Part shown: positions 5,781 to 60,664 of the stretch, in pieces
How the letters are laid out: each line of letters begins with the position of its first letter
How positions within the stretch are numbered: the first letter of the stretch is position 1
IMG/VR virus record: IMGVR_UViG_3300030099_007533
Coordinates: 39,547 to 103,546 of that record
Source: a virus
DNA length: 64,000 bases
Reading direction: 5' to 3' (one strand)
Notes under the pieces: model-generated
Seen by the model: the letters and a program-made list of their open reading frames with translations, nothing else
Database searches by the model: none
Told to the model about the DNA's origin: nothing
Position numbers and translations under genes: made by a program

Positions 5781-8333
5781 TTATTCTTCATCCACCCTAT
5801 AACTAATAAGTACCTTGTCTTTTGTTGTCTGGTCTAAATTAAGAACCCCCGCATTTTCACTTGCTTCTTTAAAGTTCTTTTTATAAATAATATTAAAATC
5901 AACTTTTCTGCCAGTTTTTTTAGAAGTTAATCTAATCTTAAACTGCGGTCGTGTCTCCGTGACAGGCGAAAAAACAGTAGGACTCAAATATCCAATTCCA
6001 TTTTTTTCTGGGTTGGGGGCTTGTTGTAATAACGCTGGTTCAATCCTAAATTTATTTCCAAAATTCAACTCTTTTGTTCTTTTTTCTTTACTTGACAAAT
6101 CATCATAAAGTTGAATTATTGGGAATATTGTGCCGCCGTCGTCAACTATCTCGACCTCGTATACTTGACTAAAATAAGATTCTAACCCTGTATAAGATTC
6201 ACTTTTTGAAGCAAAATAATATTTTGTATCTGGCTCTATGTTAACAACTTTTCCATAACCTTCTGAAAAAACATCTATTTTTTTAAATAATTTTAAATCA
6301 TTTAGATCTTTTGGTGGAGTTTTTGAAAAATATATTTTTATGTTTTTTAATACTTGTTTGAAAAAATACATTTGTTCTTCAATTGGGTTTACAATCCCCT
6401 GTTGTTTTTCATAATATTCTTTTGCTTCTTCATAGCCCTCTGTCCAAAGTTTTTTTGGAACATTTTTTGTCACAACACCACCAGAAACAAGATTCTCAAA
6501 AATAAAAATTAATTTGTTATTCACACCTGTGATTGGAAACACGTTCATAAAAGTCGGTAATGGCGGCAAATCAACAAAAGAAAACTCTGTATCTACCTTA
6601 GATTTACCGACTTTTTTTAAGGAATTTTTTGTGAATCCGCTCTGTTTTGCTTTTAAGCCTATAGATGTGTAGTTCGCAGGCGAATTTGTTACAACAACTT
6701 CAGCGCTATATTTATATTCATATGTTTCTTGTTGGATCAACTCTTGCAATTCATATCCGTATTTTGTTCCATACCTTACTTGTGAATCGTATAAAATGAA
6801 ATTATTTTCCTGTCCCAAATTATCAACTACAAAGTAAGATTGCGAACCATCATTGGAGAAAGTCGCAGCAAGTCTTTTTTTCCGAACAATATTTCCAACA
6901 CTAAGTTGTCCAAAAAACGGAACAAAGTTTCTTGATAGATCAAGCGTTGAAGTTGTGTTGGCGGATTCAATAATGTTGGACATGAGTTTAATAAGACTTC
7001 CATCCAAGAATGTATCTAAATCCTTATCAACAAGGACATCAAAAAAGCTTTTTCCTATGAGCGTCAAATATAAATTTTGTTTGTATAGTTTTACAGTTTT
7101 ATCAGTTGCGCCTATTATTTGAGATAAAGAAATACCATTATCAGCCTGTTTTGGGATCGCAGTATTGTTCTTGATACTTAATTCATTATAATAAGGTAAC
7201 GATAGATTAATTCTAAGAATGTTTGATTTCACGTTTTCAATATCAAATATTTGATTTTGGGCGGCGGTCCAAGATAAAACACTTGTTTGGCACCCCAACC
7301 CACCTTCAGGCACATCTTTATTTAAAATATTGTCATTGCCTTCCTTATAAAAAAGCCTTAAACCGGTTTCAACTTTATCAGCAAGGGCGTTTTTGCACTT
7401 TTTAACCTCTTTTGGTGTGCTAAAAAACTTTTTTTCTGATTCAGGCACATTTTGTAAACTATTATTAAAAAATGGAGAGTTTATATAATTTACCGTGCTA
7501 AACCCTTCTATTGAAGAAGGCGGGTTTATTTGCAAATAATTATTTTTATTTTCATAAGTTCTTTTATTAACTTGGTCTTTTATAAGCCCTAATAAGGCTG
7601 GGAAACCAAAACCCGGATTCTTTAAATAATCTAATAGTGGTTCTTTAGGATTGCCTGTTGCATAATAATCGCACAGGAAAAAAGCAGCTAATGTCAAAGG
7701 TTTTGCTGATTCCGCGTTACCTTTGAAGGTTAAATCGTCTCCAGTCTTTTTTTCAATATTGTAAGAAAAGATCTGTGAACACCAAAGCCAAAAATAATTT
7801 TCTATTAATTTTAATTGTTCATCAGTCTGTTTTGGTCCTGATGTATGGCTTATCGCTGTACCGCCTATTGTTTCAATAAATTTTTGTTTTATTCCCTCTT
7901 CATCAAGGATGACTGGTTCTAAATCTTTTAAAACTTTTTCTATCGCCAAATTAGTGATAAAATTTATATCTGTATCACCCGAGAGCCGATAATCAAATAC
8001 CAAGGTGTTATTGTTTAAATTAAAATTTGGTGCCCAAACATAGTTTTTCATAAAGGCGATTGGGTCCTCAAGATATTTATTTATGTCAAAAAAGTTTCTT
8101 AAATTTGTTATGTTGTAATCTTTATAATTGGTAATTGTAAATTTTGGTGAATAAAATTTTTCCTCTTTAACTTCCGGTGGGGACGCCTCAGAGGCAAATT
8201 TGTCAACCTCTGTTAGATCTATAGTTTCAAAATCTATCTTTAATTCATCTTCTTTTTCGGTTGAAAGGCTTTCATCTGTTGGATTTTCGGAGCCGTAAAG
8301 AACATTTTCAACATTTTCTATTTCTATTGTCAT
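5781..8333 (-). CDS. Large virion structural protein (850 aa), unknown role
   Basis: An 850-residue Asn/Lys-rich protein with an acidic N-terminal stretch (residues about 10-55) followed by mixed alpha/beta sequence. The C-terminal part includes FKIRLTSKKTGRKVDFN and ends with an acidic VDEE. I do not recognise a family. It sits two bases after the 567-aa gene and between two homologous GDDE-motif proteins, so a part in the same tail or baseplate assembly is likely. There is no signal peptide or transmembrane segment. The 61-nt gap that follows it downstream of the 322-aa gene shows no clear hairpin. Confidence 0.55.
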   Translation of the reverse strand: MTIEIENVENVLYGSENPTDESLSTEKEDELKIDFETIDLTEVDKFASEASPPEVKEEKFYSPKFTITNYKDYNITNLRNFFDINKYLEDPIAFMKNYVWAPNFNLNNNTLVFDYRLSGDTDINFITNLAIEKVLKDLEPVILDEEGIKQKFIETIGGTAISHTSGPKQTDEQLKLIENYFWLWCSQIFSYNIEKKTGDDLTFKGNAESAKPLTLAAFFLCDYYATGNPKEPLLDYLKNPGFGFPALLGLIKDQVNKRTYENKNNYLQINPPSSIEGFSTVNYINSPFFNNSLQNVPESEKKFFSTPKEVKKCKNALADKVETGLRLFYKEGNDNILNKDVPEGGLGCQTSVLSWTAAQNQIFDIENVKSNILRINLSLPYYNELSIKNNTAIPKQADNGISLSQIIGATDKTVKLYKQNLYLTLIGKSFFDVLVDKDLDTFLDGSLIKLMSNIIESANTTSTLDLSRNFVPFFGQLSVGNIVRKKRLAATFSNDGSQSYFVVDNLGQENNFILYDSQVRYGTKYGYELQELIQQETYEYKYSAEVVVTNSPANYTSIGLKAKQSGFTKNSLKKVGKSKVDTEFSFVDLPPLPTFMNVFPITGVNNKLIFIFENLVSGGVVTKNVPKKLWTEGYEEAKEYYEKQQGIVNPIEEQMYFFKQVLKNIKIYFSKTPPKDLNDLKLFKKIDVFSEGYGKVVNIEPDTKYYFASKSESYTGLESYFSQVYEVEIVDDGGTIFPIIQLYDDLSSKEKRTKELNFGNKFRIEPALLQQAPNPEKNGIGYLSPTVFSPVTETRPQFKIRLTSKKTGRKVDFNIIYKKNFKEASENAGVLNLDQTTKDKVLISYRVDEE

Positions 8334-47510: not shown

Positions 47511-48347
47511 TTAAATAAATTTTCCAATAATGTTTTTTAGTTCTCTTTCTAAGCCAGAAAGTTCTATGTTCATAGTATCTAACTTATTCGATTTTCCAGT
47601 GTATGAGTTTGCCATCTCTCTTTGTTGAACTAATATTTTGCTTTTACTTTTTAAGTTAGATTTTATCATTTTTGCCATCTGTTTTAAAGTATATTTCTTT
47701 TTATATACAGCGTTTAGGTCTTTTGGTAACGATTCTTTCTCATTATCAAAATAAAATTTCAATATTTTACAAAGATCATCTGATGATATGAAATCCATAA
47801 ATTTATCTTGATGTATTATGAGAGGTTCACCTTTCAAAGCATTCTTTATGTTTGTCTTCAAAAACCTACTTTCTTTTTCATATATGCCAAAGCAACCAAA
47901 TATTCTTATGTTGAAAAGCTTATCATACTTGTATATTTCTTTGGTTATGATGTTTTTTGACAATCCATAATAATCTTTTGGGTTTTTCTCGTAGATTTCG
48001 TTCTCTGAACAATCGCTTATTTCTGATGCTCTGTCAAACTCTGCTCCAGAACCAAAGTTTATCAGTTTGCCAAAAGCATCTCTATTGTCTACAAGATTCT
48101 TAAACATTTGTATGTTATTTAAAAAATCTTGTAGAGTGTCTTCTCTGCCTCTAACACCGCCGTTTATTGCACAATTGATGACGACATCGTAATACCGAAT
48201 ATTAAAAAATTTACGAGTTTGTTCGGCAGATGTTAAATCAAAATCCTTTCTTGTAGAAAAACATAAGTCATACTCGCTGTTAAAAAAGTAGTCTTTAATC
48301 TGCTTTGCCAAAAAGCTATTTTCAGCAATTACTAATATCTTTTTCAT
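47511..48347 (-). CDS. SDR reductase/epimerase of the sugar locus (278 aa)
   Basis: NAD-binding start ILVIAENSFLAKQIKDYF, although the usual G-x2-G is replaced by a variant, then VVINCAINGG, LINFGSGAEF and DYYGLSKNIITKEIYKYD with active-site Tyr and Lys. It resembles dTDP-4-dehydrorhamnose reductase-like SDRs and may reduce a 4-keto sugar made by the dehydratase. The weak nucleotide motif is an oddity. Its ATG overlaps the transketolase stop, so it is part of the transketolase, SDR, RfbH, RmlB set. Confidence 0.7.
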   Translation of the reverse strand: MKKILVIAENSFLAKQIKDYFFNSEYDLCFSTRKDFDLTSAEQTRKFFNIRYYDVVINCAINGGVRGREDTLQDFLNNIQMFKNLVDNRDAFGKLINFGSGAEFDRASEISDCSENEIYEKNPKDYYGLSKNIITKEIYKYDKLFNIRIFGCFGIYEKESRFLKTNIKNALKGEPLIIHQDKFMDFISSDDLCKILKFYFDNEKESLPKDLNAVYKKKYTLKQMAKMIKSNLKSKSKILVQQREMANSYTGKSNKLDTMNIELSGLERELKNIIGKFI

Positions 48348-48820
48348 CTCTTTAAATTAATGTAGTATGGAGAATTGTCGTTAATGCTGCTCATCAATGC
48401 AGCTTTTACTTGTTTAGTGTCTTGTGGGTGAATCATTTTTATGTTTTCAAAGCACGACATAACTTTTTTATCTTCTTCAGCCCAGTGCGAAAATCCAAGA
48501 TAACCGTAATCTCTATCTCTACCGCCGCCGATAAGTTTTACTGGAACTTGTTCGTGATCAATATAATTTCTAATAACTTCAAACGGACGATATATCAGGA
48601 AAGGTGTTATGGAATATACAAATGGTATTTTTCCCTCCATTGCCATACCTACAGCAGCACCTAACAATAGTTGTTCTGAAGAACCAACGTTCCAAAACCT
48701 GTTGGGGTAGTCGATCCTAATCCTATCCCACAGTCCGTAACCTAAATCTCCTGTTAATAGGATAATATTTTCATTTTTGCCCATTTCTCTATGAAGAAGT
48801 TTACTAAACTCTTTTCTCAT
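48344..48820 (-). CDS. Transketolase subunit, pyrimidine-binding (C-terminal) domain (158 aa)
   Basis: A short protein matching the Pyr domain of split transketolases: MRKEFSKLLHREM, LLTGDLGYG, FWNVGSSEQLLLGAAVGMAM (TPP-activating Glu), FSHWAEEDKKVM and IHPQDTKQV. The third transketolase domain is absent, as in some split forms. It overlaps the TPP-domain subunit by 17 nt. Two-subunit transketolases in sugar loci may transfer a two-carbon unit to make a branched or chain-altered sugar; here that is inference. Confidence 0.8.
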   Translation of the reverse strand: MRKEFSKLLHREMGKNENIILLTGDLGYGLWDRIRIDYPNRFWNVGSSEQLLLGAAVGMAMEGKIPFVYSITPFLIYRPFEVIRNYIDHEQVPVKLIGGGRDRDYGYLGFSHWAEEDKKVMSCFENIKMIHPQDTKQVKAALMSSINDNSPYYINLKR

Positions 48821-49439
48821 TTATTTCCCTTTTTGCCAGTTGGTAGTCTTCTTCTGACATTATATGATAATGTGCATTTAACCCGCTTAAAAATTCAAAT
48901 TGGTTTACACTTGTGTAAACCAAATTTATTTCAGGTAAAAATGTTTTTAACCTTTTTGATAAATAATCAGTATCCACGGCATCATAAGCAGCATACCCAT
49001 TAATGTTTACATATACTTTAATGTTTTTAAGATTATTCTCGTAAATAAATTTTAAACCTTCCCAAATAGACCCCTCAGCACACTCTCCATCGCTTATTAA
49101 ACAATATACCTCTCTACTTGGATCTGCCATTGCCCTGCCAATAGCAACAAGAAGACCCATACCAAGACTCCCAGTTGAGCAGAAAAGGTGATTTTCTTCA
49201 TCTCTGTGGGGGTGACCACCATGCTTTAGAAACAAGTCATTCGCATCAATCCCCTTATACTTTTCAATTACTGCGTACAGAGCGACGGCGCAATGACCAG
49301 ACGATAAAATAAAAATATCATCACTTTTCATTTCTGAATAAATTTTATCTATTATTCCCACACTTGAAAAATAAGAACCAAGGTGTGATAGTTTATTTTT
49401 GTAACATATATCGAGTATTCTTTCTTTTAGTCTTTCCAT
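48804..49439 (-). CDS. Transketolase subunit, TPP-binding (N-terminal) domain (211 aa)
   Basis: TPP-domain features: GSYFSSVGIIDKIY, LSSGHCAVALYAVIE, HGGHPHRDEENH, STGSLGMGLLVAIG and SDGECAEGSIWEG then VNIN, the thiamine-diphosphate and Mg binding run. I chose ATG at 49439 (MERLKERI); the track start lies further upstream in the GT2 gene. It overlaps that gene by 13 nt and the Pyr subunit by 17 nt. Together the two subunits form one enzyme. Confidence 0.82.
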   Translation of the reverse strand: MERLKERILDICYKNKLSHLGSYFSSVGIIDKIYSEMKSDDIFILSSGHCAVALYAVIEKYKGIDANDLFLKHGGHPHRDEENHLFCSTGSLGMGLLVAIGRAMADPSREVYCLISDGECAEGSIWEGLKFIYENNLKNIKVYVNINGYAAYDAVDTDYLSKRLKTFLPEINLVYTSVNQFEFLSGLNAHYHIMSEEDYQLAKREINEKRV

Positions 49440-50155
49440 CTTTTTTGCCACTCCTCTCTTATTATCATATCGTATTTTGTCTCTTCGCGATGCATACCCC
49501 ATGTACTCTGTTGTTCATTCCACCTATAATAATATCCCAGCCACCGTGGAAACGGATAAATAAAGATGTTTTGTTCTGCCATGGAAAAATAAAGATCATA
49601 ATCTGACGCACCTAAAAACATTTCAGAACGCCAGTTAATTTTTCCGTCGTCATATAGTGTTTTTTTTAAGACTATTGACGGAGTTGTAACTGGACATCCA
49701 CGGAACAACTTTTCTTTAAATTCTTTTAAATTTTTATATTGATGTCTGACAATATTTACAACCTGCGTGTCGGATTCTCTAACACAGTGTAAGGGGCTTT
49801 GCATAACAGAAATTTTGTCTGTCTTTGATAAGATATCAACAACATTTTGAACATAATTTTTGTCAATATAATCATCTGATCCAAGTATGGTAAAATAATC
49901 CCCTGATGCTATCCTAAGCCCCTCTTCTACAGGTTCTTGATACGAATGCCGGTAAATATTTTTCGCTTTGGACATTATTAACCGTGGAAATTTAACTTTA
50001 ATTTTTTCCACTATTTTTACTGAGCTATCAACGCTTTCGTTGTCAACAAAGATAACTTCTAAATTTTTATAAGTTTGTTCAAGCGCTGATAGGACGCACT
50101 GTTCAATCCATTTTTCACTATTATAGCACGGGATTATTATGGTAAACTTAATCAT
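49427..50155 (-). CDS. Family 2 glycosyltransferase (242 aa)
   Basis: Strong GT2 motifs: TIIIPCYNSEKWIEQCVLSA, VIFVDNESVDSS, and ILGSDDYIDKNYV with D-D for metal binding. The C-terminus contains LGASDYDLYFSMAEQ, an ED-like acceptor motif. Its 3' end overlaps the transketolase start. Acceptor and donor are unknown. Confidence 0.85.
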   Translation of the reverse strand: MIKFTIIIPCYNSEKWIEQCVLSALEQTYKNLEVIFVDNESVDSSVKIVEKIKVKFPRLIMSKAKNIYRHSYQEPVEEGLRIASGDYFTILGSDDYIDKNYVQNVVDILSKTDKISVMQSPLHCVRESDTQVVNIVRHQYKNLKEFKEKLFRGCPVTTPSIVLKKTLYDDGKINWRSEMFLGASDYDLYFSMAEQNIFIYPFPRWLGYYYRWNEQQSTWGMHREETKYDMIIREEWQKRWKD

Positions 50156-59436: not shown

Positions 59437-60447
59437 CTAAATTTTGTGTGGGCTGTCTGAAAAGAAAATATCCATATCCTTCCCAGTGCCAGCCAAGAAT
59501 TCTTCAATTCTGTTAGTAAAGTCTTCTTCTGTTGAAAAATATTCAAAGAAGTCTGATTTACCATCGTTGTTTCTAAGACTCCAGTTACTAACCTGCCGCA
59601 TAATATCCATCTTGTTAATCACAACACGGTTCACAGCGTTCAGTTGAACTGACTTCTTAAGAAATGGAAGACTAAGCCAGTTACACTGCCTAACTCTTCC
59701 AGTTGTAGCGCCAAATTCCTGTCCTGCTTCTTGTATATGAGCAAAAACTTTATTATGTGGTGGTTGGAACTGCTTTGTACCAACATAAGTCTCATAAGCT
59801 TTGGCAACTCCCCAGACATCACGGATGGCATAATGAGGAATGGCATTTAAAAGCACCGAGGATGTCAGACAATGGCTTGAAGTAACGTAAGGGTAGTCTC
59901 CCCAGTCAATATCCAATCCAAAGCCTTGAGCGCCTTCACAGAGGATTTTAACATCAGACTGATTCCAGAACTCATCATGTAGATCAATCAAGTACGGCTT
60001 AAGCTCTGGAACATCTTTAGCCATGATACCTGTTCTGGCATATTTATCTCTGTAAGCAGGACCATTGCCTCGCTTGGTAGTACCAATCTTTTTATCTTTA
60101 CCATCTTCTTCTTTGTGGTCATCTGTAATTACATGACAGTTTTTAGCGACATAAATAAGTCCCGTGGTGTCAATCCCACCTGACTTAAGTTCATCTAACT
60201 CTTTAAAAAACTGTACAGGATCAAGTACACAGCCATTGCCAATGATACTTTTGATCCCAAAAAAGACCCCTGCTGGGATGTGATGCGTAACAAACTTACG
60301 ACCCTCATGGAAAATAGTATGACCAGCATTGCAGCCACCATTGTAGCGTAGGACATGAGTATACCCTCCTGTCTTACATAGGTGGTGAGTTACTTTTCCT
60401 TTACCCTCATCACCATATTGAAGTCCAACAACGACATCAGCGATCAT
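59437..60447 (-). CDS. Adenylosuccinate synthetase-like enzyme, short PurA/PurZ0 type (336 aa)
   Basis: PurA family: Asp13 in YGDEGKGK, NAGHT with His43, GTTKRGNGPAYRDKYARTG, EGAQGFGLDID, GVAKAYETYVG, EFGATTGRVRQC and guanine-contact NKMD (278-281). The reaction is IMP (or, for PurZ/PurZ0, dGMP) plus aspartate with a nucleotide triphosphate. At 336 residues it matches archaeal PurA and phage PurZ (about 340), not bacterial PurA (about 430). PurZ of 2-aminoadenine (Z) phages replaces Asp13 by Ser; here Asp is kept, so PurA or the GTP-using intermediate PurZ0 are the candidates. No Z-pathway partner (MazZ, DatZ) is seen in this window. Upstream AAGGAGAAGATG gives a good start signal. Confidence 0.82.
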   Translation of the reverse strand: MIADVVVGLQYGDEGKGKVTHHLCKTGGYTHVLRYNGGCNAGHTIFHEGRKFVTHHIPAGVFFGIKSIIGNGCVLDPVQFFKELDELKSGGIDTTGLIYVAKNCHVITDDHKEEDGKDKKIGTTKRGNGPAYRDKYARTGIMAKDVPELKPYLIDLHDEFWNQSDVKILCEGAQGFGLDIDWGDYPYVTSSHCLTSSVLLNAIPHYAIRDVWGVAKAYETYVGTKQFQPPHNKVFAHIQEAGQEFGATTGRVRQCNWLSLPFLKKSVQLNAVNRVVINKMDIMRQVSNWSLRNNDGKSDFFEYFSTEEDFTNRIEEFLAGTGKDMDIFFSDSPHKI

Positions 60448-60664
60448 TCATCTTCTCCTTGCGTTGCTTCTTGCGACTAAGCCGCTTTGGTTCTTCAGTG
60501 TTAGTTGATCTGGTTTTTACCACATAACCCTTCAACTGCTTTTTAACTTTAACTTGTAAATTTTTTTCTGAGGAAAGCTGCTTTCTTTTTCTATCCGCAC
60601 CCTCAAAAGTTTCAAAACGACCTGCAATCTTCCACGGTCGTCCAAATAATGGATTTGCCTCCAT
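60437..60664 (-). CDS. Small basic protein (75 aa)
   Basis: A strongly basic protein (KKQRKEKMNDR; SRKKQR) with Trp and a short beta-prone NPLFGRPWKIAGRF at the start. No family recognised. It overlaps PurA by 11 nt. Possible nucleic-acid binding from charge only. Confidence 0.45.
   Translation of the reverse strand: MEANPLFGRPWKIAGRFETFEGADRKRKQLSSEKNLQVKVKKQLKGYVVKTRSTNTEEPKRLSRKKQRKEKMNDR

What the first reader, a model, noticed from the sequence alone, without database searches (positions are those of the whole stretch)
59437..60447. Short PurA with Asp13 and NKMD: PurA or PurZ0?
Phages with 2-aminoadenine (Z) DNA encode PurZ, an archaeal-PurA-like enzyme in which Asp13 becomes Ser and ATP is used. 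PurZ0 keeps a GTP pocket. This enzyme has the short length, the Asp, and the NKMD guanine contact. If used on dGMP it would mark a Z-genome phage of an intermediate type; otherwise it is an IMP-using PurA boosting adenine nucleotides.
Basis: partly seen in the sequence, partly recalled or inferred. Interest (0 to 1): 0.65.

Follow-up and report, generated by a model that had tools for sequence, protein, structure and literature searches.

The report
Short PurA of marine T4-like phages
The gene is a real, shortened adenylosuccinate synthetase that most likely makes ordinary adenine nucleotides from IMP for a marine phage; it is not the enzyme that builds 2-aminoadenine (Z) DNA, and its nearest cellular relatives are in tiny Patescibacteria.

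Summary
The minus-strand ORF 59437-60447 (336 aa) is an intact adenylosuccinate synthetase with Asp13, NKMD (278-281) and a short architecture.

The Z-DNA reading does not hold. Asp13, Thr128, Arg303, Lys331 and Asp333 (E. coli numbering) are kept in 80/80 sampled phage and 37/37 Patescibacteria homologues. Five PurZ/PurZ0 references have Ser13 and Lys/Leu303, and published work reports Ser13 in all 147 phage PurZ/PurZ0. A maximum-likelihood tree puts the gene in a clade (100/100) with short PurA of Patescibacteria, on the bacterial PurA side; joining it to PurZ is rejected (AU p = 0.0015). DatZ and DpoZ relatives were not found; MazZ could not be tested properly.

Thirteen Patescibacteria genomes with this form have no other PurA, and four of four tested carry PurB. 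It is best read as an IMP + aspartate + GTP enzyme feeding host PurB.

A lead beyond the question: all six sampled related contigs of 140 kb or more also carry a CBS-less IMPDH-family gene. Its truncated flap lacks the Arg-Tyr dyad, as in GMP reductase, and no phage contig tested has GuaA. This suggests GMP to IMP to AMP conversion. The window's own contig (103-kb fragment) lacks that gene.

The parts
59437..60447 (-). short bacterial-type adenylosuccinate synthetase (PurA), 336 aa, stop codon included
   Evidence: AlphaFold model pLDDT 89.6, pTM 0.90
60455..60460 (-). AAGGAG ribosome-binding site, 7 nt before the ATG
   Evidence: read from sequence
60409..60411 (-). codon of catalytic Asp13 (Ser in PurZ and PurZ0)
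59605..59616 (-). NKMD, residues 278-281: Lys331/Asp333 guanine contacts in E. coli numbering
   Evidence: K279 and D281 invariant in 74 sequences
59695..59697 (-). codon of Arg251 (E. coli Arg303, which contacts the IMP 2'-OH and aspartate; Lys or Leu in the PurZ/PurZ0 references)
   Evidence: role of Arg303 from PMC8342488
60437..60664 (-). 75-aa upstream ORF whose end overlaps the purA start by 11 bases, suggesting co-transcription

Best explanation
It is a genuine PurA, used as an auxiliary metabolic gene by an uncultured marine T4-like phage. Shown: the gene is intact; it belongs to a deep clade of short, Asp13-bearing, bacterial-type PurA shared by marine phages and Patescibacteria; its IMP, aspartate and GTP contacts are those of PurA. 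Inferred: during infection it condenses IMP with aspartate, using GTP, to adenylosuccinate; host PurB then makes AMP, enlarging the adenine nucleotide pool for phage DNA and RNA. Also inferred, for the clade rather than shown for this contig: a CBS-less GMP-reductase-like enzyme in the same phages may supply IMP from GMP, so that guanine nucleotides are turned into adenine nucleotides.
For: Families: PRK01117 PurA 274 bits, archaeal short PurA 190, PurZ only 124 (all under the curated cut-offs). Tree: clade with Patescibacteria short PurA 100/100, inside the bacterial side; grouping with PurZ rejected, AU p 0.0015. Residues: D13, T128, T300, R303, R305, K331 and D333 as in PurA. Structure: best PDB matches are PurA (E 1e-27), PurZ/PurZ0 only 1e-17. 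Close relatives are the only PurA of 13 Patescibacteria genomes, four of four tested have PurB, and two flanks read are chromosomal. No DatZ in 15 phage contigs while the phiVC8 control rang; no DpoZ/DatZ hits; no PurB in 15 phage contigs. Companion gene: present in 6/6 contigs of 140 kb or more, flap without Arg-Tyr in 27/27, no GuaA in 15/15.
Against: No biochemistry. The clade has odd fixed residues (Tyr272, Gln306, Ser416) whose effect is unknown. The genome is a 103-kb fragment with no companion gene of the purine route on it. GC of related phage loci ranges 33-49%, so 'AT-rich phages need A' is weak as a general reason.
Confidence: 0.85

Rival explanations
1. It is a PurZ0/PurZ-type enzyme acting on dGMP, and the phage has Z (2-aminoadenine) DNA.
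For: Short architecture shared with PurZ; PHROG 1211, the family hit, is labelled 2-aminooxy adenylosuccinate synthetase; a family-A-like polymerase ORF exists in 11/15 related contigs.
Against: Asp13 in all homologues against Ser in PurZ/PurZ0; tree and AU test; Arg303 and Thr128 kept; no DatZ; no DpoZ match.
Confidence: 0.02
2. A short PurA that works on another 6-oxopurine nucleotide, such as dIMP or a modified or 7-deaza base, for DNA modification.
For: Clade-specific Tyr272, Gln306 and Ser416; PurA homologues do sit in deazapurine-type clusters on Rhizobium plasmids.
Against: The same clade form is the only PurA of 13 Patescibacteria genomes; Arg303, which reads the IMP 2'-OH, is invariant; the Rhizobium copies are archaeal-type, not of this clade.
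Confidence: 0.06
3. The companion IMPDH-family gene is a true IMPDH, so these phages push IMP to both GMP and AMP rather than G to A.
For: Slightly higher identity to E. coli GuaB (39-41%) than GuaC (31-35%); IMPDH model 271 against GMP reductase 226 bits.
Against: Truncated flap without the Arg-Tyr dyad in 27/27, the stated difference of GMP reductase (PMC2525682); no GuaA in 15 contigs.
Confidence: 0.3

Closest known systems
Short PurA of Patescibacteria (Kaiserbacteria, Parcubacteria and others)
   Same: same clade, 51-72% identical, same length, Asp13, same clade-specific Tyr272/Gln306/Ser416
   Different: sits in bacterial chromosomes as the only PurA, in genomes that (where tested) have PurB; in the phages it is extra to a host enzyme
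Canonical bacterial PurA (E. coli type)
   Same: catalytic and substrate residues, sequence class, best structural match
   Different: about 100 aa longer (E. coli residues 155-197 and about 345-392 missing here); Arg272, Arg306 and Gly416 there
Archaeal short PurA (Pyrococcus horikoshii, 5K7X)
   Same: the same two deletions, Asp13
   Different: on the other side of a long, fully supported branch; lacks the Leu-Asp-Ile-Asp motif (LSLY there); Lys331 not kept
PurZ (phiVC8, S-2L) and PurZ0 (Archimedes, Milani)
   Same: fold, short architecture, phage-borne
   Different: Ser13, Lys/Leu303, Ser128, changed base pocket at 331/333 (Phe/Asn or Gln in PurZ; Met/Asp in PurZ0); separate lineages; accompanied by DatZ/MazZ/DpoZ or DutZ/DmtZ
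Viral purA as auxiliary metabolic gene (PMC13288924)
   Same: purA reported in estuarine viruses and read as purine metabolism
   Different: no sequence class, origin or companion gene given in the passages read

Membership tests
PurA (adenylosuccinate synthetase) | Asp13 and the IMP/aspartate/GTP residues of E. coli PurA | tested here: met
   D13, K16, N38, H41, T128, T129, R143, Q224, T239, T300, T301, R303, R305, K331, D333 present
PurA (adenylosuccinate synthetase) | clusters with cellular PurA in a tree | tested here: met
   bacterial PurA side, branch 100/100
PurA (adenylosuccinate synthetase) | curated NCBIfam PurA cut-off | tested here: not met
   274 bits against 402 (PRK01117); these models cover full-length PurA of about 425-430 positions, and the Pfam cut-off is passed (280 against 27)
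PurA (adenylosuccinate synthetase) | uses IMP and GTP in vitro | not testable with these tools
   needs enzyme assay
PurZ0 / PurZ | Ser at position 13 (100% of 147 phage sequences, PMC12884076) | tested here: not met
   Asp in every homologue checked
PurZ0 / PurZ | falls in the PurZ/PurZ0 clade | tested here: not met
   grouping rejected, p-AU 0.0015; PurZ model 124 against cut-off 300
PurZ0 / PurZ | Z-cluster partners: DatZ, DpoZ | tested here: not met
   DatZ: 0 of 15, phiVC8 control positive; DpoZ, DatZ: none in own contig and two large related contigs
PurZ0 / PurZ | Z-cluster partner MazZ / DUF550 / DUF5664 | tested here: inconclusive
   the PF18909 search rang nowhere, including in the two Z-phages given as controls
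GMP reductase (companion gene, not in this window) | truncated flap without Arg-Tyr dyad; Cys, Thr and Glu kept | tested here: met
   (27/27); criterion from PMC2525682
GMP reductase (companion gene, not in this window) | curated GMP reductase score | tested here: not met
   226 bits against 397; IMPDH 271 against 481.5

The most novel reading that the evidence does not exclude
A large group of uncultured marine T4-like phages carries a two-gene purine conversion route, a CBS-less GMP reductase plus a short PurA exchanged with Patescibacteria, that turns guanine nucleotides into adenine nucleotides for the phage.
Probability: 0.4. Interest if true: 0.6.

Novelty: new variant of a known kind. 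Interest (0 to 1): 0.4.

Why it matters
It removes a false lead: shortness plus phage origin does not mean PurZ, and the PHROG label for this family (2-aminooxy adenylosuccinate synthetase) would mislead annotators. It also defines a deep PurA clade that links marine phages and Patescibacteria, and it points to a testable guanine-to-adenine route in phages. The paired E. coli purA guaC mutant described in PMC2525682 gives a simple test.

Tried and rejected
PurZ/PurZ0 membership (residues, tree, AU test, partner genes). Shortness as proof of archaeal or PurZ descent: rejected as evidence; whether the short form is convergent or ancestral stays open, because 'all short forms together' is not rejected (AU p 0.24). 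Family-B polymerase as an argument against Z-DNA: fails, since no DNA_pol_B was found in 15 contigs; the lineage has a roughly 395-aa family-A-like ORF instead, and a pol III alpha in about 20 loci. PF18909 search for MazZ: rang nowhere, uninformative. Direction of transfer (phage to Patescibacteria or back): not resolved. Patescibacteria copies as mis-binned phage DNA: rejected, with housekeeping-type neighbours in a complete chromosome and in an 831-kb contig.

Full report
Observation. The ORF is real and exactly where stated, on the minus strand: 59437-60447, 336 aa, ATG start with AAGGAG 7 nt upstream. Pfam gives Adenylsucc_synt at 4.4e-83. Asp13 in YGDEGKGK, NKMD at residues 278-281 and the short length are all present. 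Against enteric PurA it lacks residues 155-197 and most of about 345-392, the same two places as in P. horikoshii PurA and PurZ.

The record. The window is bases 39547-103546 of a 103,546-base virus contig. It is T4-like, with terminase, major head protein, UvsX-like recombinase and baseplate-type genes. The nearest terminases in isolates are only about 40% identical, in Flavobacterium phage immuto and Microcystis phage Mel-JY01. No PurA match above 60% identity is present among 50,697 phage records; the best is 38.5% in a 735-kb megaphage. IMG/VR in contrast holds hundreds of relatives; the 80 best of the first scan are all short, 327-365 aa.

Is it PurZ or PurZ0? The published survey (PMC12884076) finds Ser in place of Asp13 in all 147 phage PurZ and PurZ0 sequences, and Asp in 99% of the PurA group. 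Here Asp13 is kept in 80 of 80 sampled phage homologues and 37 of 37 Patescibacteria homologues, and in all 106 phage loci after a second scan (where the one sequence missed by the pattern also reads GDE). Other positions agree: Thr128 (Ser in PurZ and PurZ0), Thr300 (Val), Arg303 (Lys or Leu), Lys331 and Asp333. Arg303 is the residue that meets the 2'-OH of IMP in PurA and is displaced in PurZ (PMC8342488). The tree of 61 sequences puts the gene in a clade with short Patescibacteria PurA (100/100), and this clade on the bacterial PurA side of a long branch (100/100); PurZ, PurZ0 and archaeal-type PurA lie across it. Forcing the clade together with PurZ/PurZ0 costs 83 log units, AU p 0.0015. 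The predicted fold (pLDDT 89.6) matches PurA structures at about 1e-27 and PurZ/PurZ0 at about 1e-17.

Partner genes. DatZ (PF12917) was found in none of 15 related phage contigs, while phiVC8, the positive control, rang. PhiVC8, Archimedes and Milani proteins of the Z regions, including three DpoZ, found nothing beyond the PurA itself and a general dUTPase in the own contig and in two large related contigs of 185-190 kb. MazZ is not settled: the PF18909 search rang nowhere. The own contig is a fragment, so absence there alone would be weak.

What it most likely does. Thirteen Patescibacteria genomes that carry this short form have no other PurA, and four of four tested have PurB. Two flanks read are chromosomal: RsmA-, UvrD- and Mg-chelatase-like genes around the copy in a complete chromosome, and Fur- and transporter-like genes in an 831-kb contig (my reading of the ORFs). 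So the form very probably does the ordinary PurA reaction in those cells. In the phages, PurB is missing from all 15 contigs; the product would be finished by the host. That the enzyme uses IMP and GTP is inference from residues, not shown.

A companion gene. In 28 of 106 short-PurA loci a CBS-less IMPDH-family gene lies within 10 kb, always on the same strand. In larger contigs it is present in 6 of 6 of at least 140 kb; the contigs without it are 103 kb or shorter, the window's own among them. The 27 aligned proteins lack the flap segment with the Arg-Tyr dyad and keep Cys, Thr and Glu; the literature names the missing dyad and truncated flap as the mark of GMP reductase (PMC2525682). Overall identity is slightly nearer to E. 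coli GuaB than GuaC, so this is a lead, not a proof. GuaA, needed to make GMP from XMP, is absent from all 15 contigs. The reverse association is weaker: 3 of 6 contigs of 138 kb or more found through the companion gene have a short PurA, one of them with an in-frame stop. Shared ancestry of the phages may explain part of the association.

Known or new. purA in viruses is known as an auxiliary metabolic gene (PMC13288924), and GMP-reductase-like genes are known in a few phages. What I did not find described is this Asp13 short clade, its link with Patescibacteria and its pairing with the companion gene; my paper searches cover open-access text only.

Limits. The P. horikoshii and S-2L rows were taken from printed PDB alignments and are incomplete at the ends. 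Only five PurZ/PurZ0 and three archaeal-type sequences were in the tree. Whether shortness is ancestral or convergent is open (AU p 0.24), as is the direction of transfer.

Noticed in passing
L063:7456-8469; G001:C1:135248-136231 and 8 other related contigs: CBS-less IMPDH-family gene with truncated flap (GMP-reductase-like) in phages that carry the short PurA; always on the same strand when within 10 kb.
   Followed up: partly
L087 (LR756501.1, 735-kb megaphage), match at 6001-6921: PurA of 399 aa with a partial first deletion (E. coli 177-197), placed next to the short clade in the tree (99/89).
   Followed up: partly
G145:C1:151425-152315 (minus): A 45% identical short PurA with one in-frame TAA in a 211-kb virus contig; decayed copy, error or something else.
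   Followed up: no
L058:6415-9852 and about 20 phage loci: DNA polymerase III alpha (family C) lies at or near the gene before the short PurA; no family-B polymerase found in 15 related contigs.
   Followed up: partly
L082:6052-7239 (own contig, minus): 395-aa family-A-like DNA polymerase ORF without an obvious exonuclease part; 11 of 15 related contigs match DNA_pol_A, mostly in ORFs of about 395-400 aa.
   Followed up: no
window 31417-55374: Some 24 kb of sugar and glycan genes on one strand: GDP-mannose dehydratase-like, DegT aminotransferases, many glycosyltransferases, PIG-L deacetylase, formyltransferase-like.
   Followed up: no
window 48344-49502: Transketolase apparently split over two neighbouring ORFs (one part with Transket_pyr; the other by eye).
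   Followed up: no
L222:7375-15721 (Rhizobium leguminosarum plasmid): Archaeal-type short PurA between folE and purB, near QueE, QueC, nitrile hydratase and an IMPDH-like gene: a deazapurine-type cluster.
   Followed up: no
PHROG 1211 (hit of window 59437-60447): The PHROG label '2-aminooxy adenylosuccinate synthetase' is applied to true Asp13 PurA of phages and can mislead annotation.
   Followed up: yes
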